Shown here piece after piece: positions 21,193 to 51,402 of a DNA stretch of 64,000 nucleotides; position 1 is the stretch's first letter; every line of letters begins with the position of its first letter. Under the pieces are notes generated by a model, which was given only the letters and a program-made list of their open reading frames with translations, had not been told where the DNA came from and made no database searches. Source of the stretch: Sideroxydans lithotrophicus ES-1 (lineage in GTDB: Bacteria > Pseudomonadota > Gammaproteobacteria > Burkholderiales > Gallionellaceae); contig NC_013959.1 of the NCBI RefSeq assembly GCF_000025705.1, forward strand, positions 2,798,001-2,862,000, in the 5' to 3' direction. The position numbers and the translations under genes are program-made.

Positions 21193-21370
21193 ACTCCCTT
21201 CGCCCGCAGGCGGGATAACCAGCGACTTGGTTGACGTTGTTTGGCAGCCTAGTCGAATGGCTAGTAGTTACATCAGAAGGGCTGGGGATGAGGGACTGAG
21301 CTTCACCCTCAAACTGGCTTCAACCTGCCGCCCCTCACCCTAACCCTCTCCCGCTTGCGAGAGAGGGAAT
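21193..21370. repeat. REP-type palindrome cluster holding copy A of the 62-bp core
   Basis: The left palindrome arm (CTCCCTTCGCCCGC AGGCGGG) is followed by the 62-bp core at 21215-21276 (starts ATAACCAGCGACTTGG, ends TTACATCAG) and the right arm AAGGGCTGGGGATGAGGG. A second, inverted unit with CCCTCACCCTAACCC and CTCTCCCGC TTGC GAGAGAGGG ends at about 21367, just before the dUTPase-like stop. The layout mirrors the cluster between parE and parC. Confidence 0.85.
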
Positions 21371-22069
21371 TTATTTCCCTTCCTGAACGATCAGGTATCT
21401 CGCCTTGAGCGAGCGGTAGAGCTCGTCGCGGACATTGGCGGAATCCAGATCGGCGATCTCCAGCACCTCGACCAGATGTTCGTTGTCCTCGCGGCCATCC
21501 CATATCTTGATGTAGGTGCCGGCCTTGTAGCCGTGGTCCTGGCGGAACACGTTGAGCACGTTCTTGCCGACATATTGTTTGAACAGGTCGTTCCATTCCA
21601 TGTCGCAGTCGTGCAGCAGCGATTCGAACAGCGCGAGGCTGGTGCGCCTGGCTGCGGCGAGGCCCACCAGCAGGTCGAGCTTGTCCAGCAGGTTCAGTTG
21701 GGCGAGCACATAGTTCTGGTTATCGAACTGCACCGACTTGTGGTGCAGAGCGAGTTCGGCCTGCATCTCCATCTGCGCCTGGGCGATGTTGCCGAGTTTG
21801 ACCTGTATGGCTGCGGACAGGATGAAGTGCCAGATATCGACCAGCTCCATGCGCAGTTGCGCCCAGTCGCATTCCTGCTTCTTCCACCACTTCCAGCCGT
21901 GGTGCTCGACCGCTTCGACGCCTTCGACCTGGATGGCGCGATGCCAGTTGTTGTTGGCGGCAACCCAGGCGGGGTTGACCTTGCTGTTCATGCCGTCCTG
22001 CAGTTCGAGCATGGTGAGGAGTTGGGTCTCGGAGATCGTCATTTTGCCGGCCTTGGGTAAAGCGGTCAT
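21371..22069 (-). CDS. dUTP diphosphatase-like protein, dimeric (MazG-related) type
   Basis: A 232-aa all-alpha dUTPase-like enzyme that would convert dUTP to dUMP and keep uracil out of DNA. Features of the dimeric dUTPase family: LLTMLELQDGMNSKVNPAW at the start, then EAVEHHGWKWWKK and MELVDIWHFILSA with the metal-binding acidic residues. Starts at 22069 or nine codons later at 22042 are both possible; the longer upstream frame looks non-coding. The gene ends right at the palindromic repeat cluster. Confidence 0.85.
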   Translation of the reverse strand: MTALPKAGKMTISETQLLTMLELQDGMNSKVNPAWVAANNNWHRAIQVEGVEAVEHHGWKWWKKQECDWAQLRMELVDIWHFILSAAIQVKLGNIAQAQMEMQAELALHHKSVQFDNQNYVLAQLNLLDKLDLLVGLAAARRTSLALFESLLHDCDMEWNDLFKQYVGKNVLNVFRQDHGYKAGTYIKIWDGREDNEHLVEVLEIADLDSANVRDELYRSLKARYLIVQEGK

Positions 22070-22199
22070 TTTACAGTATGGCTCTCTTTTGATTCCTGCT
22101 ACATCAAGCAAACCGAATGCAGGCCACGAAGCAGAAGACGCGACGGTTTGGGTGTTGTATAAAGGCACCATCTAAAGACACGCCCATCAGGAAATTCAA

Positions 22200-22685
22200 A
22201 TGAACAGATCGCTTCTGCTTGCCTTGGTCTTCATCGCACCGACCTTCAATGCTTTCGCTGATGACCAGAGTCTGGTCTACGTCGCTGCAGGCACTGGTAC
22301 CGGGAAGGCCAATCTTGCCATCGGTGCCGGGACTACTGTGGATGTGCTGGAGGTCAGTTCCATCGACCTCGGCAAGGTCGGCGGGAATTACACCGTGAAG
22401 TTCCAGGGCTTGTCGCTGGTGCAGAATGCCGTGCCCGTGAAGAACATGAACCTGATGTTCCGCGTGGGTCTCGGCAAGACCACGACGACTTTTACCAGCG
22501 GACTCACCGCGAGCAGGACCGGGATCGGCAGCGGTGTGATCTTCGGACTTGGTGCGCAGTATCATCCCCTACCCCACCTGGCCTTTCGCGGCGAAGTGAA
22601 CCGGATCACCTATGCAACCGCCCCCGATGGCAGTTCGCACGCGGCAACCTACCCGGTGACGATCAGCGCGCTGTATATATTCTGA
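22200..22685 (+). CDS. Small outer-membrane beta-barrel-like secreted protein
   Basis: A 161-aa protein with a clear signal peptide (MNRSLLLALVFIAPTFNAFA). Alternating polar/hydrophobic strands follow (NYTVKFQGLSLV, NLMFRVGLGKTTTTF, GVIFGLGAQYHPLPHLAFRG), and the C-terminal residue is Phe (ALYIF), the usual barrel-assembly signal. It resembles OmpA/OmpW-type eight-stranded barrels; function unknown. AGGA lies 7 bases before the ATG. Divergent from the dUTPase-like gene. Confidence 0.75.
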   Translation: MNRSLLLALVFIAPTFNAFADDQSLVYVAAGTGTGKANLAIGAGTTVDVLEVSSIDLGKVGGNYTVKFQGLSLVQNAVPVKNMNLMFRVGLGKTTTTFTSGLTASRTGIGSGVIFGLGAQYHPLPHLAFRGEVNRITYATAPDGSSHAATYPVTISALYIF

Positions 22686-22739
22686 CGCGGCCTGCCTGCA
22701 TGCATGTGCATGCCCAGAACAGATAGCGACATCCGATGA

Positions 22740-23393
22740 TCACTTCGGTGTTGCAACAACCACTTCGGTGGGCACGCCGAACTTGACCACCACGTTGCGC
22801 CGATCCGGCGACCAGTTTGCAAAATCAAAGAACCGGTCGAGCCGGAGCGGACGGCAGCCGCCCACCAGCGCGGGATGCAGGCGAAAGGCCAGCGACCACA
22901 GCGTGCTGACGATGCGCGAAGCCACTGTCACCCCTTGTGTCAGGCTCGCCACGCAAAGCTTGCCGCCGGGCTTGAGCACGCGGTGCGCCTCGGCGATGGC
23001 CTGGCGGATGTCGTCTTCGGGCAGGATGTCGAACAGGTAGACGCAGACGACGCGGTCGACGGAATGATCGGGCAGCGGGAACTGCATGGTGCCGTCGGTC
23101 TGCATCACTTTCGCGCGGTCGGCGTAGGGTGCGATGCGCTGTGTGGCAAGCCCGATCATGGTGCTGCTGAGGTCGATGCCGAGGTAGGAGGCCGTTGCAG
23201 GCAGGTGCCTGCCCAACAGGCGTAAGGCGAAGCGCCCGGTGCCGCTGGCAAGCTCGAACACGCTGGCAGCCTGTTCGAAAGCGGCGTGTGCGATGAGGTC
23301 GTCGAGCGCCGCATCTTCATAGAATGCCTGCGCATCCTGCTTGCTGCCGAAGCGGTCATAGAAGGCCTGTGCCTGTGGTCGGGTGAAGAGCAT
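22740..23393 (-). CDS. Class I SAM-dependent methyltransferase
   Basis: A 217-aa methyltransferase with motif I VFELASGTGRFALRLL, a post-I acidic strand (YLGIDLSSTMI) and motif DRVVCVYLFDILPEDD followed by EAHRVLKPGGKLCVASL. It probably acts on a small molecule or lipid; the substrate is unknown. Start chosen for AAGGAGA six bases before the ATG; an upstream ATG eight codons earlier lacks a site. Divergent from the cyclic-nucleotide-binding gene. Confidence 0.88.
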   Translation of the reverse strand: MLFTRPQAQAFYDRFGSKQDAQAFYEDAALDDLIAHAAFEQAASVFELASGTGRFALRLLGRHLPATASYLGIDLSSTMIGLATQRIAPYADRAKVMQTDGTMQFPLPDHSVDRVVCVYLFDILPEDDIRQAIAEAHRVLKPGGKLCVASLTQGVTVASRIVSTLWSLAFRLHPALVGGCRPLRLDRFFDFANWSPDRRNVVVKFGVPTEVVVATPK

Positions 23394-23531
23394 GCGGTCT
23401 CTCCTTGCGTTGGGCATCGAGAGCCTTCAGGTTACTTCCACATCGCCCCGCTTTTCAAGTTGACGCCCTTTCGCCCTCGCAGTAAATTCCGCGCCCCCAG
23501 CCAGAATCAACGAAGGCGCTCAGCACCAGAC

Positions 23532-24377
23532 ATGGACAATCTCGATTTCACTGCCCCACCGCCAAAACCGACTTTCGATACCAGGGTCGCGCTGAAATAT
23601 TTCAAGGCTTCGGGCAGCCCGCTGGATGTGGCCGCAGGCACGACGCTCTTTGCCAAGGGCGACAGGGCCAATGCACTGCTCTTCCAGCGCGACAGGATGT
23701 ATTTCCTGGTGGAAGGCGATGTGGAGCTGACGGTGAATCGTGCCGCTATCGGCACGGTATGCAACGGCGACATCTTCGGCGAGATGACGCTGATCACGCG
23801 CATGCCGCGCACGGCGACAGCCAGGGCCAAGACCGACTGCCGCCTCTACACGCTGGACAAGGACCAGCTCCATGCCGCACTCGGCGCTGCGCCTGAATTC
23901 GGCCTGTTGCTGATGAGCATCATGATCACACGCTTGCGCGACACCATCGCCGCCGTGAAGTCCTCAGGCATGCTGTCCGGCGAGGCCGGCGCGGAAGATG
24001 CGGGAGTGTTCGACAAGAAGCTGCTCAACAAGCTGGTGGATGAGCTGGACGACAGCACGCGCGTGCCCTACCAGGCCACACGCAAGATCATGGAAGAAGG
24101 CCAGGCCGGCGTGATGATGTATGTGGTGCTGGAGGGCAGCGTGGCGATCGCGATCCAAGGCAGCACGGTGGCGACCATCGGACCGGGCGGCATGTTCGGA
24201 GAGATGGCGCTGATCACGCGCGGCGAGCGCATCGCCAGTGCGATCGCACAGACCGATTGCGTATTGCTGGCGATCAGCCGCAATGTGTTCCTCGACCTGG
24301 TCTGTTCCAATCCGAAGTTTGCGGTGTCGCTGCTGGGTGCGGTGGGCAACCGCGCACGGCAACTGGCGGCGCGGTAG
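23532..24377 (+). CDS. Protein with two cyclic-nucleotide-binding domains
   Basis: A 281-aa protein with two tandem CNB domains. The first phosphate-binding cassette reads FGEMTLITRMPRTATA (about residues 81-96), the second FGEMALITRGERIASA (near 220). Both keep the Gly-Glu and Arg of the cassette. No DNA-binding or kinase domain is attached, so it is a stand-alone sensor or regulatory subunit. Start inferred from where similarity begins; the upstream frame is open but Arg/Pro-rich and non-coding in style. Confidence 0.85.
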   Translation: MDNLDFTAPPPKPTFDTRVALKYFKASGSPLDVAAGTTLFAKGDRANALLFQRDRMYFLVEGDVELTVNRAAIGTVCNGDIFGEMTLITRMPRTATARAKTDCRLYTLDKDQLHAALGAAPEFGLLLMSIMITRLRDTIAAVKSSGMLSGEAGAEDAGVFDKKLLNKLVDELDDSTRVPYQATRKIMEEGQAGVMMYVVLEGSVAIAIQGSTVATIGPGGMFGEMALITRGERIASAIAQTDCVLLAISRNVFLDLVCSNPKFAVSLLGAVGNRARQLAAR

Positions 24378-24394
24378 GTTGGATCTCTTTCGCT

Positions 24395-24616
24395 TCAGCG
24401 GAACGTACGCAACACCTGTCTCTCGGCCTTGAGCCAGTCTTCCAGTTCGTAACCGGGTTCGAAGCCGCGTTTTTCCGCCAGGTAATAAGCAGTCTGCCGG
24501 ATCCTTGACCGCAATTCCGTGGCCTTCTTCTTTGCTTGCTCGTGGAAGTCTGGCTGGCCTTCGGCGTTGAAAGGGATGACCAGTTCCCCGTACAGTGGCG
24601 TCTCTTCCTGGCTCAT
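24395..24616 (-). CDS. DUF2934-family small protein
   Basis: A 73-aa protein. The C-terminal half (RIRQTAYYLAEKRGFEPGYE followed by DWLKAERQVL) has the RxxAYxxxExRG and DWxxAE pattern of the DUF2934 family. Function unknown. The ATG at 24616 gives MSQEETPLYGELV; an ATG 13 codons upstream is less likely. Located between the CNB protein and the isochorismatase-like gene on the opposite strand. Confidence 0.75.
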   Translation of the reverse strand: MSQEETPLYGELVIPFNAEGQPDFHEQAKKKATELRSRIRQTAYYLAEKRGFEPGYELEDWLKAERQVLRTFR

Positions 24617-24712
24617 GGTGAATGCCCCGCAAATAAGGGCATCCATTAGTAGCAAACCTTGGTTACAAAAAAATGAATGCCGCTGATGTGGCCGGGCAGC
24701 GCCCCAGCCATC

Positions 24713-25279
24713 TCACTTGACCAGTTTCGACAGCTTCTTGAACGATGCGGTGCCGGCGATCTTCAGCAACTGGAACACGACTGCCTCTGTGCAGGTGGGC
24801 ACGGCTCCGGCCAGCACCATGGCCTCCATTGCGGTTTGCTTGTTATCGGCGCTGCGGCTCAGCACGGCGTCCTTGACGACATGCACGTTGAATCCTTCTT
24901 CCAGCAGTTCGATGACGGTTTGCAGCACGCAGACATGCGTTTCCATGCCGGCGACGATGAGCTGCGTCCTGCCGCTCTCTTCCAGTCGGTCGACGAAGGC
25001 CTCGTTGCCGCAACAGCTGAAGGTCATCTTTTCATGGCAGGGTGCGGCAGGCGCCCTGTTCTTCAGTTCGCTCAATGTCGGGCCCAGCCCTTTGACATAC
25101 TGTTCGGTGAACACCACCGGTATCGCCAGTTCATTCGCGGCCTCGAGCAGGATGCCGGCATTCCTGGTGAGTTGGCTCAGCCCTGCCTGATCCATGGCGG
25201 CGCAGAGTTTTTCCTGCACATCGATGACGAGCAGCACGGCTTTTTCCGGTTCGAGCATGAATTTGTTCTGGATAGACAT
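24713..25279 (-). CDS. Isochorismatase-family cysteine hydrolase
   Basis: A 188-aa enzyme of the isochorismatase/nicotinamidase-like superfamily, closest in style to YcaC. The nucleophile Cys lies in ETHVCVLQTVIE, and the catalytic Asp in LLVIDVQEKL. A Lys in the HEKMTF region may complete the triad. Substrate unknown. GGAG precedes the ATG. It neighbours a PEBP-type gene on the same strand, 137 bp away. Confidence 0.9.
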   Translation of the reverse strand: MSIQNKFMLEPEKAVLLVIDVQEKLCAAMDQAGLSQLTRNAGILLEAANELAIPVVFTEQYVKGLGPTLSELKNRAPAAPCHEKMTFSCCGNEAFVDRLEESGRTQLIVAGMETHVCVLQTVIELLEEGFNVHVVKDAVLSRSADNKQTAMEAMVLAGAVPTCTEAVVFQLLKIAGTASFKKLSKLVK

Positions 25280-25416
25280 GGTTTCTCCATTGCATGGCGT
25301 GATTCGGTGGCGGAATTATGATGGAAGACCAATGGCGAGGATAGGCGACGGCAGCATCAGCTTCATTTTTCCGCTGCTGTGGTCATCCCGCTCTCTGCGT
25401 CATGCACCCGGCGAGT

Positions 25417-25893
25417 TCAATGCTGGCGCTGGTAACGACCGATCAGTTCGGCGCGGCTGATCGTGTAGCCCTGCATCATGGTTTCCAGTGCGGCCTTGGT
25501 GGGCGACTTCAGGTCCGGCAGCACGATGTCGAGGGCGATCAGTTTGTGGAAGTAGTGGTGGTTCCCTGTCGGCGGGCAGGGTCCACGATAGCCGATGGCC
25601 TGCCAGTCGTTCTTGCCCTGCAATGTGCCCGGCGGCAGCGCAGCAGCGGCGATGCCTTCGGGCAGTTCGTGCGTGTCGGGCGGGATGTTGTAGAGCACCC
25701 AGTGTACCCAGGTCATTTTCGGCGCCCTGGGGTCGGGTGCGTCCGGGTCGTCGATGATCAGGACCAGGCTTTTGGTGTTTTCCGGCACGCCGCTCCAGCC
25801 CAGTTGCGGGGAGACGTTCATGCCGTCGCAGGTATGGCGCTCGGGGATCGCACCGTGGTTGGGAAAGGATGCCGAGGTGATGGTGAATGGCAT
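25417..25893 (-). CDS. YbhB/YbcL-family (PEBP, Raf-kinase-inhibitor-like) protein
   Basis: A 158-aa phosphatidylethanolamine-binding-fold protein. Diagnostic stretches are CDGMNVSPQLGWSGVPENTK then LVLIIDDPDAPDP, WVHWVLYNIPP, and IGYRGPCPPTGNHHYFHKLI, the ligand-pocket loops of the family. AAGGAG precedes the ATG. No signal peptide, so cytoplasmic. Function in bacteria is poorly defined. Confidence 0.93.
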   Translation of the reverse strand: MPFTITSASFPNHGAIPERHTCDGMNVSPQLGWSGVPENTKSLVLIIDDPDAPDPRAPKMTWVHWVLYNIPPDTHELPEGIAAAALPPGTLQGKNDWQAIGYRGPCPPTGNHHYFHKLIALDIVLPDLKSPTKAALETMMQGYTISRAELIGRYQRQH

Positions 25894-26035
25894 GATGTTC
25901 TCCTTGTCGAGGAACAGGCCAGTCTGAGTGATCAGGCGGGATGGGGACGCGTGCTATGGCGATCTGCGTCGGTTCAACTTTATGCGCATTTGCCGGTTCT
26001 GCCAAGCAGCGAACAACCCGCTTGGCGACATTGCT

Positions 26036-28051
26036 TCATTCCTGGCTGCACACCCGGTTGCGCCCTGATCTCTTTGCCTGATACATGGCCTCGTCGGCGC
26101 GCTTGAGCATGTCTGCTATATCGCTGTCTTTTGCCACCAGGCCGGTCACCCCGATCGAGATGGTGAAGGAAAGGGTCTGGCCCTGCTCCAGCGGCATCGC
26201 TATCGCTGCAACCGCCAGGCGCAAGCGTTCGGCTGCATCGAACGCTTGTGCGGCGGTCGCTTCCGGCAGCAGGATAGCGAACTCCTCGCCGCCGAGGCGG
26301 CCGATGATGTCGATCTCGCGCATCGTCTGCAGGCAGACGGCACCCAGTGTCTGCAGGACAGTATCGCCCACATGGTGCCCATAGGTATCGTTGATGTCCT
26401 TGAAGTGATCCACATCCAGCATCATCAATGCCAGCGGCTTGCCGTAACGTTTGGTGCGCAATATCTCCTGTTCTGCCAGTTCGTAGAAATGGCGCCGGTT
26501 GTTGAGACTGGTCAATGCGTCGATCTGCGCACGCCGCTCCAGTTCCTGCTCGAATTTCTTTCTTTCGGTGATGTCGTGGAATGCCACCACGATGCCTGCG
26601 GCCTGCTGTTCCCTGATGATCGCGGAGACGCTCACCGAGATCGGCAACAGCTGCCCGTTCTTGCACCTGAATATCTCTTCCACCGCACGGTAGGTCTCCC
26701 CGGTCCGCGCCACGCGCAGCATGCTGCACTCGTGCTTTTCCTTTTGCTTGCCGTCACCATGGACATGCAACGTGCCATGCATGTCCTTGCCCAGGAGTTC
26801 GTTCTCGCTGTAGCCCAGCAATCGGCATGCTTCAGGATTGGCAAATGTGATCTTGCCTTCCAGGTCGGCGACCAGCAGGCCGTCGCTCATGGTGACGGCG
26901 ATCTCGCGCAGGCGCGCCTCTTCTTCTTCCATCCTGACCCGCGCCTGCTTGCGGCTCAGGCTGAAAAAGGCGATGGCCAACGACCCGAACGCAAGCAGCA
27001 GGTAAGCGACACCGTACAGGATGTCCCTGCCCACCTCATTGATCTCGGCAGCCTCGGTGAAGGTTGCATAGGGGGTGAACGAAACGATCTTCCAGTAATA
27101 TTCGCGCGCTGACAGTTCGTGCTTGCTGGGAGACCGCGGCAACGGCGAGCCAGTGGATGAGCGCTGCCCGGGTTGCAATGGATAGACCGTGGAATACACG
27201 AACAGCCCGGCATCTGTCTGCAGCGCCCCGCTGTCGCCGGTCGATATGGCGTTCCATACGTCGGGGTATTTCTTTCCGAACCTGAGTTCCGGCTTGCCCA
27301 GCATGAAACCCCATTCTTCATCTTGCTTCGCGCTGCTCAACCAGTAACCATCGCGGTTGAGCAGCATGCCGCGGCGCCGATCGCCGCCGCGCATGACATC
27401 GCGGAAGTGCTGCAGCAGCTCTCCGCCAAAGTAATTGAGCAGGATAACGCCGCGTTTGTGCCCGGCACCATCGAACACCGGCATGCCGAAACGGATCATC
27501 GGTTTGTAGGGGAGTTCCAGCTGGTCGTGCTCGATGTTCAGGTCCAACGGAGAGACGAATATCTCGTTGCGGTCGAGCTTGATGCTGTCGCGGAAGAAAT
27601 ATCTGCCGGATTTATCCTGCAGCTGGCTGCGCGGAACGATGGCCGGGCTGCCCTCATTGAAGTTGACACGGACGATCTCGCGACCGGAGGTGTCCAGGTA
27701 GCGCACCTGGTCGTAGTTCCCCGATATCCTGCACAATTCCAGAAACAGATTGGCCAGTTCGTCGAAGCGCTCCTCGCCGCCATGATCGAGGAAGCGCCGC
27801 AGTGACGGGGTGGACGCAAGCAGGCGCAGATCCGAAGTGACCGTGGAAAAATCACGCGCCACCAGATTCTTCGCGGTGTCGACCCGTGCCGCTTCTCTTA
27901 CCTTGGCGTTGTTGATCCGGTCCTGTACATCAAACCGTATGCTGAGAAAGATCGCGACGGTGAGCACGATCGCGGCAGACAGGTAGATCAGGACGAATCG
28001 CCGCAGCAGTGCCGGAACAGGCATTCTCGCAGCAGCGCTTGGTTGCAACAT
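26036..28051 (-). CDS. Membrane diguanylate cyclase with periplasmic sensor, PAS and GGDEF domains
   Basis: A 671-aa enzyme predicted to make c-di-GMP. It has a membrane helix near residues 18-40, a periplasmic Cache-like sensor domain, a second helix (about 330-355), a PAS domain (LREIAVTMSDGLLVADLEGK onward) and a C-terminal GGDEF domain with an intact GGEEF active site. An RxxD inhibitory site (REID) lies in the canonical position before it, so product feedback is expected. Start chosen for GGAGG five bases before the ATG; a GTG four codons upstream is the alternative. It belongs to the c-di-GMP cluster of this region. Confidence 0.93.
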   Translation of the reverse strand: MLQPSAAARMPVPALLRRFVLIYLSAAIVLTVAIFLSIRFDVQDRINNAKVREAARVDTAKNLVARDFSTVTSDLRLLASTPSLRRFLDHGGEERFDELANLFLELCRISGNYDQVRYLDTSGREIVRVNFNEGSPAIVPRSQLQDKSGRYFFRDSIKLDRNEIFVSPLDLNIEHDQLELPYKPMIRFGMPVFDGAGHKRGVILLNYFGGELLQHFRDVMRGGDRRRGMLLNRDGYWLSSAKQDEEWGFMLGKPELRFGKKYPDVWNAISTGDSGALQTDAGLFVYSTVYPLQPGQRSSTGSPLPRSPSKHELSAREYYWKIVSFTPYATFTEAAEINEVGRDILYGVAYLLLAFGSLAIAFFSLSRKQARVRMEEEEARLREIAVTMSDGLLVADLEGKITFANPEACRLLGYSENELLGKDMHGTLHVHGDGKQKEKHECSMLRVARTGETYRAVEEIFRCKNGQLLPISVSVSAIIREQQAAGIVVAFHDITERKKFEQELERRAQIDALTSLNNRRHFYELAEQEILRTKRYGKPLALMMLDVDHFKDINDTYGHHVGDTVLQTLGAVCLQTMREIDIIGRLGGEEFAILLPEATAAQAFDAAERLRLAVAAIAMPLEQGQTLSFTISIGVTGLVAKDSDIADMLKRADEAMYQAKRSGRNRVCSQE

Positions 28052-44096: not shown

Positions 44097-44109
44097 TTCC
44101 AGGCCTGAC

Positions 44110-44928
44110 TTAGAACTTTTCATACGGCATCAAATAGCGCCATTGCCCGAGCGGCAATTTGCACATCGACATGCGCCCGATACGCAAGCGCTTCATCGCT
44201 TGCACCTGCAGCCCGACTGCCAGGCACATATGGGCGACCTGGCCTGGTTGCGCGCCTTTGAGGGCGAAACGCAAATGTGTTTCGTTCTGCCAGCTCACCT
44301 TGACCGGAGGCAACGGCTTGCCGTTGAAACTGAGCCCGTGGTTGAGCAGCTTGAACCCATCGGGCACCAGCTCGCCGGCAACCTCGACGACATACTCCTG
44401 TTCGATCGTGGCAGCATCCTCGGTCAACTTGCGGATGACACGATAATCCTGGGTAAATACGGTCAGGCCGCTCGCGTGCAATTGCAGCGGCAAGCATTGC
44501 GTCAGTCGCACAAAATGCTGCTTGAGCAAGCGGATACCGGAACGGTCGTCCGCTGCGCGCGTATCGGCACTGGGCAATTGCCTGATCGAGTCGGCAAGGA
44601 TTAAAGATTGCCCTTCACGATCGCTCCCTCTCCCGCTGGGATAACCAGCGACTTGGTCGCCGTTTTTTGGCGGCCTAGTCGAATGGCTAGTAGTTCCATC
44701 AGAGGGTTGGGGTGAGGGTTGATGAAATAAAATGGTCACCGACTCAACCGGAACCAGCGTGGCATCGGGGTGCAGCTCGACCTTCTGCTGCGACACCATG
44801 AACTGCGGTTCTTCCACCACCTGTCCGTCCACGCTCACCCAGCCACCGGCAATATACAGCTCCGCCTCGCGGCGCGAGCAGTGAACCAGTTCGGCCAGAC
44901 GCCTGGCGAGACGGACGGGGACGGTCAT
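44110..44928 (-). CDS. RsuA/RluF-type pseudouridine synthase with in-frame repeat insertion
   Basis: A 272-aa RNA-modifying enzyme. N-terminal S4 RNA-binding domain (about 1-60: LARRLAELVHCSRREAELYI), then the synthase core from about residue 120. Residues about 71-103 are encoded by a palindromic REP unit containing the 62-bp core, which adds a low-complexity Ser/Pro/Gly/Arg linker (PSPQPSDGTTSHSTRPP) between the domains without breaking the frame. Where relatives usually have RLDxxTSGL, this one reads PLQLHASGL, so the catalytic Asp appears to be Gln. It may be inactive or use another residue. Confidence 0.85.
   Translation of the reverse strand: MTVPVRLARRLAELVHCSRREAELYIAGGWVSVDGQVVEEPQFMVSQQKVELHPDATLVPVESVTILFHQPSPQPSDGTTSHSTRPPKNGDQVAGYPSGRGSDREGQSLILADSIRQLPSADTRAADDRSGIRLLKQHFVRLTQCLPLQLHASGLTVFTQDYRVIRKLTEDAATIEQEYVVEVAGELVPDGFKLLNHGLSFNGKPLPPVKVSWQNETHLRFALKGAQPGQVAHMCLAVGLQVQAMKRLRIGRMSMCKLPLGQWRYLMPYEKF
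44621..44718. repeat. REP-type palindrome with copy B of the 62-bp core, inside a coding gene
   Basis: Left arm CTCCCTCTCCCGCTGGG, core 44641-44702 (ATAACCAGCGACTTGGTCGC continuing to TTCCATCAG), right arm AGGGTTGGGGTGAGGG. It lies in frame within the pseudouridine synthase gene. Confidence 0.88.
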
Positions 44929-45001
44929 GTGAGGTATGTCCTGGAAGCGAAGGCTCGCATTGTAAACGCTCAGTTCCGGCGTTCACCTGTAAAATCCGGA
45001 C

Positions 45002-45232: not shown

Positions 45233-45267
45233 GCGTCCTGCGGCGACCCATCTTTGGTTGCAGACAA

Positions 45268-46605
45268 TTATTGCCCGGTGCGCTTGAAGCCGGTGATATC
45301 GAAGACCACCGACCGGCTCATCACGAAGCGGCCCTTATCCTTGACCGCATTGGCGTTCAGCAATACCGGCAACCTGGCGCCATCCTTGCGCACGATCTCC
45401 AGCTCGAGATTGCGCACCCAGCCGTGCTCCTTGAAGTGCCGGTAGCTGTCCTGGAATTTCTTCACGCTGGCTGGCGTCAATATATCGGTCAGCCTGATCT
45501 TCCCCACCACTTCCTCCCGGGCGAGGCCCAGCCATGCGAGTTCGGTGTCGTTGACCTGGACGAACACCCCGTCCAGGTCGAGCGAATGACAACCGCAGGG
45601 AGCGTTGTGATAGAGATCCGCAAACTGGTCGGCGCATTTCTTTTGCGCGCTCCCGGCCTGCGTGCACTCGCCCAGCTTGCTGACAAGGTTGGCGTTGGCC
45701 GACTCCAGGATCGCGATTCTTCTCTCGAACTGTACCGTGCGGCTTTCCACCAGCTCTTCGAGCCGTCGGCGATGCTGCTGCAGTTCCTCTTCGACTTCCT
45801 TGTCCTTGGTGATGTCGATCAGGATACCCTGCAGGAATAACGGCTCCTCCGATTCATGGCGTACCAGCACCGCTTCGTTCAGGAACCAGCGCACTTTGCC
45901 TTCGCGGGTGAGCAGACGGCATTCACATCGCAACGGCTCGCCGCTCTCGTAACAGTGCGAGATCTGGGTGTAGGCACCGGTCCGGTCTTCCGGATGCAGC
46001 AGCTTGAGAATACCTTCCGGGTCGGCCAGCAATTCTTCGGGAGCGTAACCGAGCTGGCGTATCTGCGGGCTTATATAGATCAGTTTGCCGGTCACATTCA
46101 GCGCGGTCGAGTAAGTGATCGCAGGGATCTGCTCTACCAGTGAACGGTACTTCGCCTCGGCCCGGGCCAGGGATGATTCCATCAGCTGCTTTTCTTTCAA
46201 TGCCAGCTGCTCGCGAAGCACCCTCTCGATGACTGCGGGCAGCAGTTCCAGGTATTGAAGGTTGGGGTCCTTGACCACGTAGTCCTGGGCACCGAGCTTG
46301 ATCGCTTCCACGGCTACCGCGGCATTGTCGGCGCCGGTCAGCATGATGACCGGCAGCGGGATCGCCCCAAGGTCGTCTTTCAGTTCGGCCAGGAATTCCA
46401 GGCCATTCAGGTCGGGCAGGTTGTAGTCGAGCAGCACGCAGTCCAGTTTCTCCGTATGCACCAGTTGCAGGCCGTCACGCGCGGTTTCAGCCTCGACCAG
46501 AACGAATTCGAAATCATGCGTGTCTTGCGCAAAAGAGCGGCGGCAGGCCATGCGGTCCACAACGTCGTCTTCGACTATGAGCACGTGTATCTGTGGTTTT
46601 GTCAT
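45268..46605 (-). CDS. Response regulator with two PAS domains, no output enzyme
   Basis: A 445-aa protein. The N-terminal receiver (about 1-125) has VLIVEDDVVD, phospho-Asp in CVLLDYNLPDLNG, Thr in VIMLTGADN and Lys in DYVVKDPN. A PAS/PAC domain (about 150-275, YRSLVEQIPAITYSTALNVT) and a coiled coil follow, then a second PAS/PAC (about 330-445, LYHNAPCGCHSLDLDGVFVQ). No HisKA, GGDEF, EAL or DNA-binding domain follows, so it must signal through partners. Its start overlaps the upstream response-regulator stop (ATGA); third gene of a two-component operon. Confidence 0.9.
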   Translation of the reverse strand: MTKPQIHVLIVEDDVVDRMACRRSFAQDTHDFEFVLVEAETARDGLQLVHTEKLDCVLLDYNLPDLNGLEFLAELKDDLGAIPLPVIMLTGADNAAVAVEAIKLGAQDYVVKDPNLQYLELLPAVIERVLREQLALKEKQLMESSLARAEAKYRSLVEQIPAITYSTALNVTGKLIYISPQIRQLGYAPEELLADPEGILKLLHPEDRTGAYTQISHCYESGEPLRCECRLLTREGKVRWFLNEAVLVRHESEEPLFLQGILIDITKDKEVEEELQQHRRRLEELVESRTVQFERRIAILESANANLVSKLGECTQAGSAQKKCADQFADLYHNAPCGCHSLDLDGVFVQVNDTELAWLGLAREEVVGKIRLTDILTPASVKKFQDSYRHFKEHGWVRNLELEIVRKDGARLPVLLNANAVKDKGRFVMSRSVVFDITGFKRTGQ

Positions 46606-47018
46606 TGTGGCACCTCGCTGATCGTCCAATAAGCGTCGAGAGTGCGCATGACTTCGACGAATTGACGGTAATCCACCGGTTTTGCCATATAGCCGGCCAC
46701 GCCGAGGTCGAAACTCCTGATCTTGTCCTGTTGCTCCTCGGATGTGGTCAGCACGACCACCGGGATGCGCTTCAGATTTTCGTCCTGCTTCACGATCTGC
46801 AGGAACTCGATTCCGTTCATGATGGGCATGTTGAGATCGAGCAGGATGATGCACGGCCTCTCGCTGCCGGGATCGCGCAGGTACTTCAGGGCTTCCTCGC
46901 CATTTTCCCGATTCACTATCGGGTTGGTGACGCGAATCTCCCCCAGGGCGCGGATGACCGTCATGACATCCACCTGGTCGTCTTCCACCAGCAGTATCGG
47001 CTTGTCTGCAGTTCTCAT
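46602..47018 (-). CDS. Single-domain response regulator (Rcp1-like)
   Basis: A 138-aa receiver. LLVEDDQVD, phospho-Asp in IILLDLNMPIMNGIEF, Thr/Ser in VVVLTTSEEQ and Lys in GYMAKPVDY are all present. The long form with an extra C-terminal helix resembles the phytochrome-partner Rcp1 group. Both its ends overlap neighbours by ATGA (kinase upstream, RR-PAS-PAS downstream). Likely the first phosphoacceptor of the kinase. Confidence 0.94.
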   Translation of the reverse strand: MRTADKPILLVEDDQVDVMTVIRALGEIRVTNPIVNRENGEEALKYLRDPGSERPCIILLDLNMPIMNGIEFLQIVKQDENLKRIPVVVLTTSEEQQDKIRSFDLGVAGYMAKPVDYRQFVEVMRTLDAYWTISEVPQ

Positions 47019-48367
47019 GTTTTCTCCCCCTTGTCCTGATTCGGGGGCGCGGGCTTGCGCGGAAGCGTGAAGAAGAATGTGCTCCCTTCCCCGACGACAG
47101 ATTCCACCCAGATGGTCCCGCCGTACATCTCGACGATCTTCTTCACCAGCGCCAGGCCGACACCCGAACTTTCCACGCGATCGCGCGGTGCCAGCGTCTG
47201 GAACAGCTGGAAGATCTTTTCGAAATGCTGCTGCTTGATGCCGGGGCCATTGTCCGAGACGCTGAATTTCCACTGCTTCCCTTCGGCGCAGCAGTTGATG
47301 CGTATCCTGCCCTCGGGTTTGTCCATGTACTTGATGGCGTTCGAGAGCAGGTTCTGGAACAGCTGCTGGATACGCGTGGGCTCTGCCATGACGGTCGGCA
47401 AGGGATCTTCGATGGTGACGGCGATGTTTGCCGGCGGGGCCAGCAAGTCGATCACCTCCGGCACCAGCCTGCCGATATCCACTGCTGTCATCGTCTCCTT
47501 GACCCTGCCCACGCGCGAATACAGCAGGATCCCGTCTATCAATCCATCCATGCGGTGCACCCGGTTGATCAGCAGACGCATCTGCTCCTTGCCGTCTTCG
47601 TCGAACTTGTCGGCATAGTCCGTGGACAGCCAATCTGCCAGGGAGCTGATGCCGCGCAGCGGGGCCTTGAGGTCATGCGAGACGACGTAGGCAAAATTGT
47701 TGAGCTCTTCGTTGGCGCTTCCCAGTTCCTGCAGCAACTGGGCACGATGTGCCTCGACCTGTTTGCGCTCGGTTATATCGCGCAGGAAACAATAGACTCG
47801 CCCGCCATGCAGATCGCTGTAATTCGAGCTTTCCTCGACGATCTGTATCTGTCCGTCTTTGCGGCGCAAGCGGGATTCGAATCGGTCGCTGCCCTTCTGC
47901 ATCAGGGTGCCGATGTGCCGCACCACCCCATCCTCCGTTTCGGCCGCCTCCACATCGGCTATGTTCATGCCTATCAATTCTGCGCGGCTGTAGCCCAGCA
48001 TATTGCAATAGGCATCGTTCACTTCCAGGATGCGGCCCTGCATATCCATGATCAAGAAGGCATCCAGCGAGGTCCTGATCATGACCTTGAATTGTTCTTC
48101 CTCGTTCTTGCGCAACATATCCTCGATCCGCTTGCGCTCGCGAATCTGGATGACCAGCGGTCGGAACAGGAAGAAATACAGGGACGGCGAGATCAGCGCG
48201 ACCAGCAGCGATGCGTCGAGGATCGCTTCATCGATCAAGGATTCCCGCGGCAGGAAGTAGAGCAGCAGCATCACCGACGCTTCCGAGACAAAGACCGACA
48301 CTGCGACTATCAGGAAGATTAAAGCCGGTGATTTCGTAAGACGCGATTGTTTTTGTGGGGTATCCAT
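47015..48367 (-). CDS. Membrane PAS sensor histidine kinase
   Basis: A 450-aa kinase. Two membrane helices (about residues 14-36 and 50-72), one PAS domain (about 90-205, VMIRTSLDAFLIMDMQGRIL), HisKA with the phospho-His in FAYVVSHDLKAPLRG, and HATPase with QNLLSNAIKY, DNGPGI and SSGVGLALVKKIV. The periplasmic loop is very short, so sensing is probably by the PAS domain or membrane. First gene of the operon with the two response regulators. Confidence 0.94.
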   Translation of the reverse strand: MDTPQKQSRLTKSPALIFLIVAVSVFVSEASVMLLLYFLPRESLIDEAILDASLLVALISPSLYFFLFRPLVIQIRERKRIEDMLRKNEEEQFKVMIRTSLDAFLIMDMQGRILEVNDAYCNMLGYSRAELIGMNIADVEAAETEDGVVRHIGTLMQKGSDRFESRLRRKDGQIQIVEESSNYSDLHGGRVYCFLRDITERKQVEAHRAQLLQELGSANEELNNFAYVVSHDLKAPLRGISSLADWLSTDYADKFDEDGKEQMRLLINRVHRMDGLIDGILLYSRVGRVKETMTAVDIGRLVPEVIDLLAPPANIAVTIEDPLPTVMAEPTRIQQLFQNLLSNAIKYMDKPEGRIRINCCAEGKQWKFSVSDNGPGIKQQHFEKIFQLFQTLAPRDRVESSGVGLALVKKIVEMYGGTIWVESVVGEGSTFFFTLPRKPAPPNQDKGEKT

Positions 48368-48669
48368 CTCTCACGACCGCCTATCTGTCTGATGCGTGTT
48401 ACTAAAGCATCCCAACGGGGATATATCGGAGCGAGCGTCGTACCTTCTTTTGCAATCTGCCGGGACGTTCGAGAATGAACCATGTTCAGGCAGGCAACTG
48501 CCCTCGGTTTTGATTCTGCATCTTTGACAAGACGATGTCCACTCTTGCCTGAGAAACCCTGAGCCAGGCTTCCAGTGATCGTTGCGCTACCGTCCAATCT
48601 TGCGACATGACAGGCGTGTCATGAATCCATACGGGAGGAAACACCCCCGCTTACAACCTCGTTTCCTGG
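48368..48669. other. Region of about 300 bp with no convincing gene
   Basis: A minus-strand frame spans most of it but has no ribosome-binding site and no recognisable composition. It probably contains the promoter of the histidine-kinase operon. Confidence 0.45.
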
Positions 48670-48876
48670 TCACTTGTCCGCGATTTTGTCCTGCTGCTGC
48701 GCAGGAGCCTGGTCTGATTTCAGCGCGTCGTCCGTAGCCCCTTCCTGGTCCGCGAATGAACCGGGACGCAGACCCGAGAATGCCGTGCTGAACACGCGTA
48801 CGGCAATCACCGCCGGCACGACCAGAGTGAGAACCAGGAATACAGTTATCAATAGCCAATGATGTCCCATGATCAT
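48670..48876 (-). CDS. Small single-pass membrane protein
   Basis: A 68-aa protein. A membrane helix (about residues 7-28, WLLITVFLVLTLVVPAVIAV) is followed by an acidic, Gln-rich cytoplasmic or periplasmic tail. AAGGAG precedes the paired ATG codons at 48876 and 48870; either could be used. Not recognised. Confidence 0.6.
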   Translation of the reverse strand: MIMGHHWLLITVFLVLTLVVPAVIAVRVFSTAFSGLRPGSFADQEGATDDALKSDQAPAQQQDKIADK

Positions 48877-49063
48877 GTTCTCCTTGCAGATTGAAAATGT
48901 CGGTCCGGATCATATGCAGACATCCGGATATCTTTCTTGACTGGGGAATCCCGGTTAAGTTTCAAAACTGATCAATTCCCAATGGCCATGCTGCTGAAAT
49001 ATATTTGGGGCAAGGCAGAACAAAGGAAAAAGATCGGGGAGTTGTGCCTGCGACTAACCGCGG

Positions 49064-49519
49064 TCAACGATCAGCCGGGGTCTCGCGCTCGCTCTCTGCA
49101 GGCTTTGGGATGATGATCGGTTTTTTGTATTTCCAGTCATTGTCATACATCGACTCGACCGAATCCTTGACGATCTGCTTTCTGAACGCATTATCTATGC
49201 GTAGCCAGCGCACCCTCAAGGCTTCATCGAGGCCGGCTTCTTGCAGGGATTGTTCCAGCAGATCGTTGCGCAGATCGAACAGCTCAGGGGTGATATACAT
49301 TGCTTCGTGGACCATTTTGATGTCCTTGCCGGTGTAAGCGGCAGGGCCGCCCATCTTCTCGGCCATGAAACTGGTTTGCCGGTCTTCTATCGCTTTCTGG
49401 TCGTGCCCGGCAAAGAACTGTTTCAACCATGCATGGGCATAGACCTTGTCATAGAAGATCTTGTGCACCCTCTGCAGGACAGGCAGTCCGCCCATGGTTT
49501 CAAATAACGTCTGGCTCAT
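49064..49519 (-). CDS. Truncated-haemoglobin family protein
   Basis: A 151-aa globin. LFETMGGLPVLQRVHKIFYD is the truncated-globin N-terminus. The proximal His is in KMVHEAMYITPELFDLRNDL, and FFAGHDQKAIEDRQTSFMAEKMGGPA is the E-helix region. The C-terminal tail of about 20 residues is Lys/Pro-rich. It would bind O2 or NO. A GGGGGAAG precedes the ATG; upstream in-frame starts lack one. Divergent from the DsrC-like gene. Confidence 0.88.
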   Translation of the reverse strand: MSQTLFETMGGLPVLQRVHKIFYDKVYAHAWLKQFFAGHDQKAIEDRQTSFMAEKMGGPAAYTGKDIKMVHEAMYITPELFDLRNDLLEQSLQEAGLDEALRVRWLRIDNAFRKQIVKDSVESMYDNDWKYKKPIIIPKPAESERETPADR

Positions 49520-49724
49520 GAAATCTTCCCCCGGTTTGAAGCCCCTGATCACCCCTCCGCACTCGATCGAACGGCAACCAGTGTCAAGCGAACGTGAAAT
49601 TTTGAAGCGAGATCTGAACAATCACGATAATAATGTATCGGAGATATATGTATTGTCCGGATTCTAATTTATTATTGAATCGCCGTTGATTGCATGCGTC
49701 CATGAAACTCATGAGGAGGAAGAT

Positions 49725-50039
49725 ATGCAGCTACCTGACATCGATGAAGAAGGATATCTGATCGACCCTTCGGCCTGGAATGAAGAGCTCGCCAGAAGGT
49801 TCGCCGATCAGGAGAACATCCAGCTTAACGAGGATCACTGGGATGCGATCCATTTCATGCGCCAATATTACGCGGAGCATCAGGTCGCTCCGGATGTCCG
49901 CCACGTGACCAAACACCTGGCACAGCGATTGGGCGCCGAATCGCGCAACAAGGTATTCGAGTTGTTCCCCTATGGTTATGTGAAACAGGCCTGCAAGATC
50001 GCCGGGATGAAACGGCCCAGGGCATGGAGTACCGGGTAA
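49725..50039 (+). CDS. DsrC/TusE-family sulfur-relay-like protein lacking the penultimate Cys
   Basis: A 104-aa DsrC-fold protein: LPDIDEEGYLIDPSAWNEEL, LNEDHWDAIHFMRQYY and the C-terminal arm FPYGYVKQACKIAGMKRPRA ending WSTG. True DsrC has two Cys on this arm; TusE keeps only the penultimate Cys. Here the opposite holds: the first (KQAC) is present but the penultimate is missing. It may therefore be a regulatory relative rather than a sulfur carrier (inference). GAGGAGGA gives a strong start. Confidence 0.88.
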   Translation: MQLPDIDEEGYLIDPSAWNEELARRFADQENIQLNEDHWDAIHFMRQYYAEHQVAPDVRHVTKHLAQRLGAESRNKVFELFPYGYVKQACKIAGMKRPRAWSTG

Positions 50040-50044
50040 CTGGT

Positions 50045-50330
50045 GCCGTTCGTGCTGAGCCTGTCGAAGCATGAACGTTCCACCAAAACCAACACCGTCG
50101 GGGGTTGCCCGACAGCAAGTTACTTTCTTTTGCTTCGCCAAAAAGAAAGTAACCAAAGAAAAGGCGCCCCCGGTTTGCCGCCCTTCGGGTTCCCTCGATA
50201 TTTCGCCAACAAGCGGGGCTGCGCAACTCGCCCTAGCAGGGCACACAAAGCGTGCCCTGCCGCGGAGCTCAAACAGTGCTCGCCCAAACCTCCGCTTGTT
50301 GGTGAAATATCGAGGCGGCGCTCAGGGGAA
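50045..50330. repeat. Structured repeat arm 1 flanking the HEPN-like gene
   Basis: Contains GTGCTGAGCCTGTCGAAGC, then GGGGGTTGCCCGACAGCAAG and TTTCTTTTGCTTCGCC, all matched in inverse in arm 2 (about 51145-51275). Inside lies a nested palindrome: CCTCGATATTTCGCCAACAA (about 50192) pairs with CCGCTTGTTGGTGAAATATC (about 50285), enclosing GCAGGGCAC / GTGCCCTGC. Such segments are a dispersed structured repeat. Confidence 0.75.
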
Positions 50331-50398
50331 AGAAAGTCAAAACCCGAAACCTCAGCGTGGGCACTTCGTGCCCACTCGGTTTGGATATTGATTAGAGA

Positions 50399-50887
50399 TT
50401 ACTTTCTAGTAATCTTTGAGTGAGTTGCGTAGCTGCTGATTTTTGCTGCAAACCATACGCACACCATAGATGTGAATAGACTAAGTTTTTCTTTAGGCGT
50501 ATCAGGCAGGGGCTTATCATTCCCACAACATTTCTCTAAATACTGAGATATTGGAATCAAACCCTCATCGGTTATCTTGAATTCAATTTTGTGGCTTATC
50601 TTGTTCCTAAGGCCATTTAGATATTTTATGGCAGGAATGGAATTGTACTTTTCTGGGTATTTCTCTTTGGATAACAACGCGATCTTCTGAGCGAAAGTTT
50701 GCTTGGAATTTTCCCAGTCTAATGTTGGGTATCTGGTCTGCAGGTACTCATCCATGTAGTACTCAATAATGAGGTGACATGAAAGAAAATATCCCAGTAA
50801 TTCATAGTCGATGCTTTCAATTTTTTTCCAAGTAACATCCCCGTCACGGATATTTGAAACTAGTGGTGGCAATCCTAACTTGTCCAT
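50399..50887 (-). CDS. HEPN-like protein of unknown function
   Basis: A 162-aa low-GC gene. Its helical sequence (SIDYELLGYFLSCHLIIEYY) and the motif GLRNKISHK (about residues 94-102) give an Rx4H core as in HEPN-domain RNases and abortive-infection proteins. Two or more helices end in a hydrophobic Trp-containing helix near the C-terminus. The ATG lies three bases after a duplicated polA 3' end, whose terminal codons supply a GAGGTG ribosome-binding site. Compositional contrast and flanking inverted repeats point to transfer. RNase activity is inferred only from the motif. Confidence 0.65.
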   Translation of the reverse strand: MDKLGLPPLVSNIRDGDVTWKKIESIDYELLGYFLSCHLIIEYYMDEYLQTRYPTLDWENSKQTFAQKIALLSKEKYPEKYNSIPAIKYLNGLRNKISHKIEFKITDEGLIPISQYLEKCCGNDKPLPDTPKEKLSLFTSMVCVWFAAKISSYATHSKITRK

Positions 50888-50890
50888 ATC

Positions 50891-50943
50891 TCAATGCACC
50901 TCATCACAATTCCCGCCTTCATCCAAACCAACTTCCAGCAAGA
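50891..50943 (-). pseudogene. Duplicated fragment of the polA 3' end
   Basis: On the minus strand it encodes LLEVGLDEGGNCDEVH and stop, matching the true PolA C-terminus LEVGMGEGGNWDEAH at 51411. Over 51 aligned bases 39 are identical by eye. The fragment directly precedes the HEPN-like gene and supplies its ribosome-binding site, as if an ancestral polA end with that gene downstream had been displaced. Confidence 0.8.
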
Positions 50944-50974
50944 CTGAATGTACTGGAGTTAAATTGTTTTGACT

Positions 50975-51000
50975 ATGGAGGGCAGCTTGCTGCCCTCCAT
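50975..51000. terminator. Perfect 26-nt palindrome, possible terminator
   Basis: ATGGAGGGCAGC-TT-GCTGCCCTCCAT, a perfect 12-bp stem, followed on the plus strand by GGTTTTGTT. It lies between the polA remnant and repeat arm 2. It may also be a small REP-like unit. Confidence 0.6.
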
Positions 51001-51019
51001 ACGGTTTTGTTCTTCGCCT

Positions 51020-51280
51020 TACCTTCCCCTGTGCGCCGCCGAGTAGCGGAGACTGGTCAGGGGTAGTCGGCGAGGACTGTCTGAGCGCGTAGCGCGAGTT
51101 CCGCAGCCGCCTGACCAGTCGAGCAACACAGGGAACTGCGAAGCAGCGGCGTACCGGGGTCGCCTTCTTTTTGGTTACTTTTTCTTTGGCGAAGCAAGAA
51201 AAAGTGACTTGCCGCCGGGCAACCCCCGGCAAGCTATGCGCACCGCCATTCATGGTTCGACAGGCTCACCACGAAAGGCT
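51020..51280. repeat. Structured repeat arm 2 (inverse relative of arm 1)
   Basis: Contains GACTGGTCAGG paired with CCTGACCAGTC about 70 bases later, then CTTTTTGGTTACTTTTTC TTTGGCGAAGCAAG and GGGCAACCCCCGG, and GGTTCGACAGGCTCACC, all inverse to arm 1. The two arms enclose the HEPN-like gene and the polA remnant. Confidence 0.75.
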
Positions 51281-51320
51281 TTAGCTGTCGGGCTAGCCCC
51301 GACGGTTTTTGTTTTGACTG

Positions 51321-51402
51321 GATTCCGGCCTGATGGAACTACTAGCCATTCGACTAAGCTGGCAAACAACGCCAGCAAAGTCGCTGGTTATACGCCGGAA
51401 TG
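51321..51402. repeat. Palindromic repeat with copy C of the 62-bp core
   Basis: Terminal arms GATTCCGGCC and CGCCGGAATGAC form an inverted repeat of a family different from the CCCTCACCC units. Between them lies the 62-bp core (51330-51391) on the minus strand: ATAACCAGCGACTTTGCTGG continuing to TTCCATCAG. It ends nine bases before the polA stop. Confidence 0.88.

What the first reader, a model, noticed from the sequence alone, without database searches (positions are those of the whole stretch)
21215..51391. A 62-bp core found three times, each inside a palindrome, with compensatory base changes in its stem
Copies at 21215-21276, 44641-44702 and 51330-51391 (minus) are all exactly 62 bp. Positions 10-21 and 29-40 form a hairpin in each. 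Stem positions 18/32 are T-A, T-A and C-G, and positions 20/30 change from C-G (copy B) to G-C (copy C), so pairing is kept while sequence changes. The core sits near the apex of REP-type hairpins of two different families (CCCTCACCC type, and ATTCCGGC type). That suggests either a mini-element that targets hairpins or a conserved structured module.
Basis: seen in the sequence. Interest (0 to 1): 0.78.

Follow-up and report, generated by a model that had tools for sequence, protein, structure and literature searches.

The report
Tiny hairpin-targeting mobile DNA element
A roughly 60-letter piece of DNA that folds into a hairpin has copied itself around the genomes of iron-oxidising bacteria and their relatives, landing inside other DNA hairpins and sometimes inside its own copies, with no enzyme yet identified that moves it.

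Summary
The three copies lie where stated. They belong to a family with at least 23 places in this genome, seen in 43 of 60 genomes of the same family, own included.

The unit is TAACC...CATCA, mostly 54 or 60 nt. One strand folds into a single imperfect hairpin with a conserved 3' tail. Pairing survives sequence change: 97.7% of cells paired, 14 of 17 pairs with changes on both sides.

It is mobile. Relatives carry the palindrome empty at the same gene for copy C (three genomes) and copy B (one). Nine of 219 copies clearly sit inside another copy. Insertion adds about 60 bp without target duplication, mostly at A^G or A^A, preferring the loop or 3' arm of a hairpin.

The length is not fixed. 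The mover is not found: six element-bearing genomes of 92-100% completeness have no Y1-transposase hit; integron integrase is below cut-off in 5 of 14.

Best reading: a non-autonomous single-strand hairpin transposon moved in trans, probably by a TnpA/RAYT-like enzyme (inferred). It works like a REP but fails two REP membership tests.

The parts
21216..21275 (+). Copy A, mobile unit TAACC...CATCA (60 bp)
21194..21215 (+). Left part of the CCCTC-type palindrome that hosts copy A (ends ...GCGGGA)
   Evidence: sequence read directly
21276..21294 (+). Right part of the palindrome that hosts copy A (GAAGGGCTGGGGATGAGGG)
   Evidence: sequence read directly
44642..44701 (+). Copy B, mobile unit (60 bp)
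   Evidence: empty palindrome at the same gene in L379
44624..44641 (+). Left part of the CCCTC-type palindrome that hosts copy B
44702..44718 (+). Right part of the palindrome that hosts copy B (GAGGGTTGGGGTGAGGG)
51331..51390 (-). Copy C, mobile unit (60 bp)
   Evidence: empty palindromes at the same gene in L323, L328, L334
51391..51405 (-). Left arm of the CGTC-tagged REP that hosts copy C (CGTCATTCCGGCGTA)
51318..51330 (-). Right arm of the REP that hosts copy C (GGCCGGAATCCAG)

Best explanation
This is a family of non-autonomous mobile elements of mostly 54 or 60 bp. Shown: the unit TAACC...CATCA has conserved ends and no inverted repeats; one strand (the one written 5'-TAACC...CATCA-3') folds into a single imperfect hairpin followed by a conserved 12-nt tail, GTNGTTNCATCA; units have inserted, without duplicating the target, mostly between A and a purine and preferentially in the loop or 3' arm of another hairpin (REPs of several sequence families, and copies of itself). 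Inferred: when the strand is single-stranded, during replication or by hairpin extrusion, the folded element and the folded target are both held by a single-strand DNA strand-transfer enzyme, which cuts at CATCA^ and joins the unit to the target. The most likely enzyme class is a Y1 HUH enzyme (TnpA of IS200/IS605, or RAYT/TnpA-REP) supplied in trans and often absent from the genome today.
For: Mobility: empty palindromes at the same gene in relatives, for C in L323, L328 and L334 (3 of 29 relatives fetched) and for B in L379 (1 of 29), each lacking the 60-bp unit apart from point differences. Nine of 219 distinct copies clearly lie inside another copy, at CTTA^GT or GGCTA^GT. In G003, six near-identical copies sit at the same point of variant REP hairpins (GCGGCT/AGCCGC, GCGGTT/AACCGC), so several events look recent and independent. 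Structure: 97.7% of 2027 cells paired, 14 of 17 pairs changed on both sides, covariation 0.360 against 0.120 in shuffles (0 of 500) and at most 0.059 when slid. In other families even the outer stem is replaced with pairing kept (CAAGCA/TGCTTG, CAGCCA/TGGCTG) while the tail stays. Strand: in 116 elements chosen by their ends only, the inner stem has 72 G.T against 12 A.C cells, and the top strand folds better than the bottom in all three window copies with DNA parameters. Target: A^G 148, A^A 26, other 18 of 192; a perfect stem of 8 bp or more encloses the junction in 26% against 3.7% and 1.8% of A^R controls; among stems of 6 bp or more, loop 43, 3' arm 42, 5' arm 6.
Against: No mover was found. 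Element-bearing genomes G040, G044, G028, G046, G176 and G022 (92-100% complete) have no PF01797 hit, and four of five genomes of genus g8 tested have Y1 hits although none of the ten g8 genomes showed a copy by the strict pattern. Copies turned up at only 2 places among 102 stretches around Y1 hits, some overlapping, and at one of these the copy lies in a local hairpin. Known Y1 elements use a tetranucleotide guide 5' of the hairpin (passages) and a fixed short target (recalled); here only A^R is fixed. More than half of the targets (101 of 192) have no perfect stem of 6 bp or more. The near-constant A.C at 4/47 would be a G.T on the other strand.
Confidence: 0.55

Rival explanations
1. The element moves through RNA: a short structured transcript of the same strand is reverse-transcribed or reverse-ligated into single-stranded hairpins.
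For: G.T (G.U) over A.C bias on one strand fits RNA as well as single-stranded DNA. No Y1 is needed, and some near-complete genomes lack Y1 hits.
Against: Right ends without a left partner were few (8 listed, most of them from nested copies, two loci listed twice), whereas target-primed reverse transcription would leave 5' truncations. The 182 left-end matches without a partner were not sorted one by one; many look like chance. No Rfam match. No reverse transcriptase was looked for.
Confidence: 0.15
2. Copies arise without a dedicated enzyme, by replication template switching between hairpins, or by duplication of whole palindromes that already hold a copy.
For: Six G145 copies lie in two shared longer contexts. 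Several G040 copies lie in a 54-kb stretch with shared flanks. L104 and L199 hold alike inner-in-outer pairs in different surroundings. No mover was found.
Against: The boundaries are the same across many different palindromes and families, and the fixed tail of the unit is not part of any target read.
Confidence: 0.12
3. An integron integrase or another tyrosine recombinase moves the unit by recognising its folded strand, as it does attC sites.
For: Single-strand hairpin with unpaired spacer, extrahelical bases and a variable terminal stem, as recalled for attC. Integron integrase is over the cut-off in 9 of 14 element genomes examined, including this one, G003, G046 and G176, and in 0 of 14 control genomes. 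A copy lies within 3 kb of intI in G003, G046 and G120.
Against: No GTTRRRY/RYYYAAC boxes at the junctions read. Integrase is below the cut-off in G040, G044, G028, G004 and G022. The attC-like sites of this genome are a different 88-nt sequence. No copy in the 18.9 kb read around this genome's integron. G003 and G120 were singled out because a copy was near.
Confidence: 0.08
4. A static, host-maintained RNA or DNA module (terminator, sRNA or protein site), not a mobile element.
For: Strong covariation.
Against: Empty palindromes at the same gene in relatives, self-nesting, presence scattered between sister genomes.
Confidence: 0.03

Closest known systems
REP / REPIN elements and their RAYT (TnpA-REP) enzymes
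   Same: Small, dispersed, non-coding hairpins acting on one strand; no terminal repeats; conserved stem mismatches as in the E. coli REP (passages of PMC8266576); GTAG-like letters next to the stem. REPs inserted in palindromes, with empty copies of the palindrome elsewhere, are on record for T. roseum GTAG-23 (section 7 of PMC3733652).
   Different: REPs are about 20-40 bp with GTAG or CGTC at one end (PMC3733652, start of abstract and passages). Here GTNG is at the 3' foot and is followed by a fixed TTNCATCA tail. The unit has exact ends and sits inside REPs. No RAYT-type gene was flanked by it on both sides in the stretches searched.
IS200/IS605 insertion sequences and their small derivatives
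   Same: Subterminal hairpin, strand-specific single-strand transposition (passages of PMC8266576); no target duplication (recalled).
   Different: No gene, a single hairpin, no fixed 4-base target, and no autonomous copy with these ends seen in the loci read.
Very small mobile repeats of cyanobacteria (Elhai 2008; recalled, seen only as a citation hit) and double-hairpin / GC-cluster elements of mitochondria (passages of PMC4478555)
   Same: Tens of bases, hairpin, merging of units, AG beside the insertion point for yeast GC clusters, mover unknown.
   Different: Different genomes and sequences. GC clusters are flanked by AG or ACT repeats taken as target duplication; here the target is not duplicated. 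Preference for hairpin targets is measured here.
Integron attC sites
   Same: Folded single strand with spacer, bulges and variable terminal stem (recalled).
   Different: No GTTRRRY/RYYYAAC boxes at the junctions read; the local attC-like repeats are a different sequence.

Membership tests
REP (GTAG- or CGTC-tagged) | GTAG or CGTC tetranucleotide at the 5' foot of the hairpin | tested here: not met
   The stem begins at the first base of the unit, so the 5' side is target DNA. GTNG lies at the 3' foot, with third base A in 67, T in 34, G in 7 and C in 6 of 114 rows with a letter there.
REP (GTAG-tagged) | Flanks a RAYT gene (REPtron) in at least some genomes | tested here: not met
   102 stretches around Y1 hits, some overlapping, searched with model R1: copies at two places only, neither on both sides of the gene. 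Not all Y1 hits were fetched.
REP (GTAG-tagged) | Cut at CT/CA by its RAYT | not testable with these tools
   Needs protein and oligonucleotides.
IS200/IS605 | Y1 HUH transposase in or with the element | tested here: not met
   No PF01797 hit in six element-bearing genomes of 92-100% completeness; no autonomous copy in the loci read.
IS200/IS605 | No target duplication; hairpin used on one strand | tested here: met
   Empty sites at the same gene differ by 60 bp with no duplication; G.T/A.C asymmetry 72:12.
IS200/IS605 | Fixed 4-5-base target 5' of the left end (recalled) | tested here: not met
   Only A^R is shared: A before the unit in 174 of 192, purine after it in 192 of 192.
MITE | Terminal inverted repeats and target duplication | tested here: not met
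   Ends TAACC and CATCA are not complementary; no duplication.
Integron attC | GTTRRRY and RYYYAAC boxes at the recombination point (recalled) | tested here: not met
   Absent from the junctions listed, by reading.
Integron attC | Present with an integron integrase | tested here: inconclusive
   Integrase over the cut-off in 9 of 14 element genomes, below it in 5.
Known structured RNA family (Rfam 15) | Match to a covariance model | tested here: not met
   No match at gathering score in the window and none with E up to 1 at 44600-44760.

The most novel reading that the evidence does not exclude
A distinct class of single-strand mobile element whose target is DNA structure rather than sequence: it prefers a hairpin and A^R, keeps its own fold while replacing nearly all of its stem sequence, inserts into its own copies, and is moved by an enzyme that is neither a recognised Y1 transposase nor an integron integrase.
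Probability: 0.3. Interest if true: 0.82.

Novelty: new variant of a known kind. Interest (0 to 1): 0.64.

Why it matters
How REP-like and other very small repeats spread is an open question. This family offers unusually clean material: exact ends, empty sites in sister genomes, nested copies, about 200 distinct copies in hand with strong covariation, and a target defined largely by shape. It makes it testable whether extruded or single-stranded hairpins are insertion targets in cells, and points to an unidentified enzyme that reads hairpins. Such an enzyme could write short DNA into structured sites.

Tried and rejected
Fixed 62-bp module: rejected; among 216 distinct units the lengths are 60 nt in 127, 54 in 58, 57 in 13, 59 in 12 and other in 6. 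Known RNA family: none. Y1 transposase as resident mover: PF01797 sought in this genome (2 hits) and in 46 others; the full-length copy in this genome is bounded by a different repeat (AAAGGGGTCAG...). Integron integrase: see rivals. Autonomous long copies: right ends without a partner were mostly nested fragments; left-end matches without a partner (182) were read by eye and look like nested fragments, the tandem variant with right end GGCTATGCAAAGC, degenerate copies or chance, but were not sorted one by one. L186 was read for a transposase-like gene beside its lone right end and none was seen by eye. Spread by plasmids or phages: no match in PLSDB or INPHARED with one 62-bp query, one IMG/VR contig by pattern. 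Empty site for copy A: of 11 relatives printed (L404-L414) none has the CCCTC-type palindrome there; L404 and L407 have ATTCCGG-type palindromes instead and some others carry further repeats, so A is not tested; L415-L420 were not read. A first automatic count of nested copies (2 of 216) was wrong because a literal N in my pattern counted as a mismatch; one search replaces it. It flags 11 of 219, of which I count nine as clear (L020, L044, L063, L104, L109, L118 twice, L199, L287); in L155 the host copy is incomplete and L192 shows only a doubled tail. The two L118 cases are alike, and L287 was fetched for its transposase. The palindrome classes printed are too crude to use. Literature: (Gallionellaceae, repetitive, palindromic) found no paper; (any two of Sideroxydans, transposable, palindrom) gave 2,286 papers of which 10 were listed, none with a title on this.
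Full report
OBSERVATION. They fold as one long imperfect hairpin: stem 5-7/44-46, bulge (one base on the left, two on the right), stem 9-13/37-41, a T.T mismatch at 14/36, then an inner stem 15-21/29-35, followed by an unpaired tail; copy C also has T.T at 15/35 and copy A A.G at 20/30. A covariance model built from ten copies of this genome (R1) finds these three and no others in the window at E up to 1.

FAMILY. The whole genome, one contig of 3,003,656 bp, holds 20 BLAST matches, one more from a pattern (1,761,781) and two more from the model (207,866 and 928,488): at least 23 places. A strict pattern is present in 43 of 60 genomes of the same family, own included, with zero matches to the reversed control pattern in every row. 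With model R1, 27 of 399 genomes of the order match, 16 of them outside the own family, and of 369 class genomes only 4 besides the own one. Both of these last searches used strict filters and E up to 1e-5 and are lower bounds.

STRUCTURE IS WHAT IS CONSERVED. On an alignment of 130 matches (122 distinct), 97.7% of 2,027 cells pair, 14 of 17 pairs have changes on both sides, and the covariation score is 0.360 against 0.120 in shuffles and at most 0.059 for slid partners. That alignment was fitted to the model, which favours the structure. A second set, chosen by its two ends only and left unaligned (116 distinct units of 60 nt), shows the same pairing in the inner stem, for example 108 of 116 Watson-Crick at 18/32 and at 19/31; the weakest inner pairs are 15/35 (76 of 116) and 20/30 (89 of 116). 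In other families of the order the outer stem is replaced as well, with pairing kept: CAAGCA/TGCTTG, CAGCCA/TGGCTG, TAAGC/GCTTA, while the tail GTNGTTNCATCA largely stays. The inner stem tolerates G.T far more often than A.C on the strand written here (72 against 12 cells, p about 1e-11 if cells were independent, which they are not). That strand also folds better as DNA than its complement in all three window copies (-9.6/-5.6, -14.1/-10.8, -13.6/-12.7 kcal/mol). Against this, the near-constant A.C at 4/47 (115 of 116) would be a G.T on the other strand.

IT MOVES. Copy C lies downstream of a gene that reads like the end of DNA polymerase I (recalled motif). Of 29 relatives fetched, three (L323, L328, L334) have the same gene followed by the same CGTC-type palindrome, GCGCTCCGTCATTCCGG(C/T)GGA^GGCCGGAATCCAG, without the element; two run off their contig and the others show no such palindrome in the stretch printed. 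The own sequence differs by the 60-bp unit and one base beside it. Copy B: L379 has CCCTCTCCCACTGGGA^GAGGGTTGGGGTGAGGG at the same place, empty; in the other 28 relatives printed I see neither palindrome nor element in the 200 bases shown. So a palindrome arrived first and the element entered it later. Copy A could not be tested: none of 11 relatives printed has the CCCTC-type palindrome there, though L404 and L407 have ATTCCGG-type palindromes. Nine of 219 distinct copies are clearly inserted into another copy, either in its 3' arm (CTTA^GT) or at its 3' foot (GGCTA^GT), not all of them independent. One is in the own genome at 820.9 kb. In G003 six near-identical units sit at the same point of variant hairpins GCGGCTA^AAGCCGC and GCGGTTG^AAACCGC, which points to recent and repeated insertion.

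TARGET. Over 192 distinct copies with at least 320 bp on both sides, the junction is A^G in 148, A^A in 26, G^A in 8, G^G in 6, T^G in 3 and C^A in 1. With the unit removed, a perfect stem of 6 bp or more encloses the junction in 91 of 192, against 215 of 960 and 190 of 960 A^R controls near and far. For 8 bp or more the shares are 26%, 3.7% and 1.8%. Of the 91, the junction is in the loop in 43, the 3' arm in 42 and the 5' arm in 6. Because REPs are themselves repeated, the copies are not independent draws. More than half of the sites have no perfect stem of 6 bp, so a hairpin is strongly preferred, not required.

MOVER. PF01797 (Y1 transposase) has two hits in the own genome. The longer one is framed by a different repeat with the letters AAAGGGGTCAG; this resembles the GGGGWSAS motif of the TIR-flanked tyrosine transposases in PMC3733652 (passages). 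Among 26 and 20 further genomes, 19 and 16 have hits, but element-bearing genomes G022, G040, G028, G044, G046 and G176 (92 to 100% complete) have none, while four of five genus-g8 genomes tested have Y1 hits and no copy by the strict pattern. Among 102 stretches around Y1 hits, some overlapping, copies lie at two places; at one (L284) the copy sits in a hairpin 67 bases from the listed reading frame. Integron integrase is over the family cut-off in 9 of 14 element genomes and in none of 14 control genomes, but not in G004, G022, G028, G040 and G044. This genome has an integron with eight attC-like repeats of a different 88-nt sequence and no copy within the 18.9 kb read around it. So neither enzyme need be resident today. 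G003, with recent copies, is 85% complete, so its lack of Y1 is weak evidence; G040 is 99% complete.

MECHANISM. Shown: exact ends, no target duplication, structure kept, one strand preferred, hairpin targets preferred. Inferred: a strand-transfer enzyme for folded single-stranded DNA, supplied in trans. The nearest well-studied enzymes are TnpA of IS200/IS605 and TnpA-REP, which cut beside hairpins; the E. coli enzyme needs a stem bulge and the GTAG tetranucleotide (passages of PMC8266576). The element works like a REP, but it is not filed as one because the tag position and the RAYT association were tested and not met. The RNA route, enzyme-free template switching and an integron-like recombinase remain open in that order.

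LITERATURE. Sections or passages seen: PMC3733652 (section 7 and passages), PMC8266576 (passages), PMC4478555 (passages). REPs lying inside palindromes, with empty palindromes elsewhere, are already in print for T. roseum, so hairpin targeting as such is not new. This element, its covariation and its self-nesting did not turn up in the listings; these searches cover open-licence papers only and their lists are capped.

Noticed in passing
own genome L009 from 1565 (+), L019 1460-1485 (-), G046 L432 11425-11450 (-); a related form in L038 near 2550-2620: A second short hairpin element, ACCCGCAAGGGGTAGGCCGTGGTTGT...ACAACCACG, also sits in or beside CCCTC-type or ATTCCGG-type palindromes, in L009 and L019 right next to a copy of the first element. 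It contains GGTAGG and may be a separate hairpin-targeting family. Not in the window.
   Followed up: partly
L014 1501-1612, L063 479-595, L109 minus 2760-3010, L179 minus 6680-6735: A variant with the same hairpin but right end GGCTATGCAAAGC occurs singly or in tandem, as if the hairpin could be linked head to tail.
   Followed up: partly
own genome C1:388278-393250 (L429): A chromosomal integron: integrase (502 bits) and eight attC-like repeats of 88 nt, ends GCCTAAC/GTTAGGC, with 280-699 bp spacing.
   Followed up: partly
G003 C2, G046 C8, G120 C3 (L430, L432, L431): A copy of the element lies about 0.6, 2.1 and 2.7 kb beyond the 3' end of the integron integrase gene in three of the six genomes read over several kb; two of the three were chosen because of it. 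In G013 and G272 only 1.5-kb flanks were searched, in G176 none.
   Followed up: partly
54-nt units, e.g. L007, L009, L012: Many of the short units (54 nt: 58 of 216) carry an inner hairpin GCCCGCTTGCGGGC that resembles the tip of the CCCTC-type palindromes in these genomes; exchange of hairpin tips is possible and unexplained.
   Followed up: no
window 51050-51310 (minus) and downstream of the same gene in many relatives: A longer repeat beginning CCGTCGGGG..CCCGACAGC..AGTCACTTTTTCTTGCTTCGCCAAAGAAAAAGTAACCAAA recurs after the gene across the genus.
   Followed up: no
L318 (IMG/VR contig of 6,933 bp), 5596-5655 minus: The only copy found in viral contigs by the strict pattern; its neighbours look by eye like phage tail genes, no family search made.
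   Followed up: no
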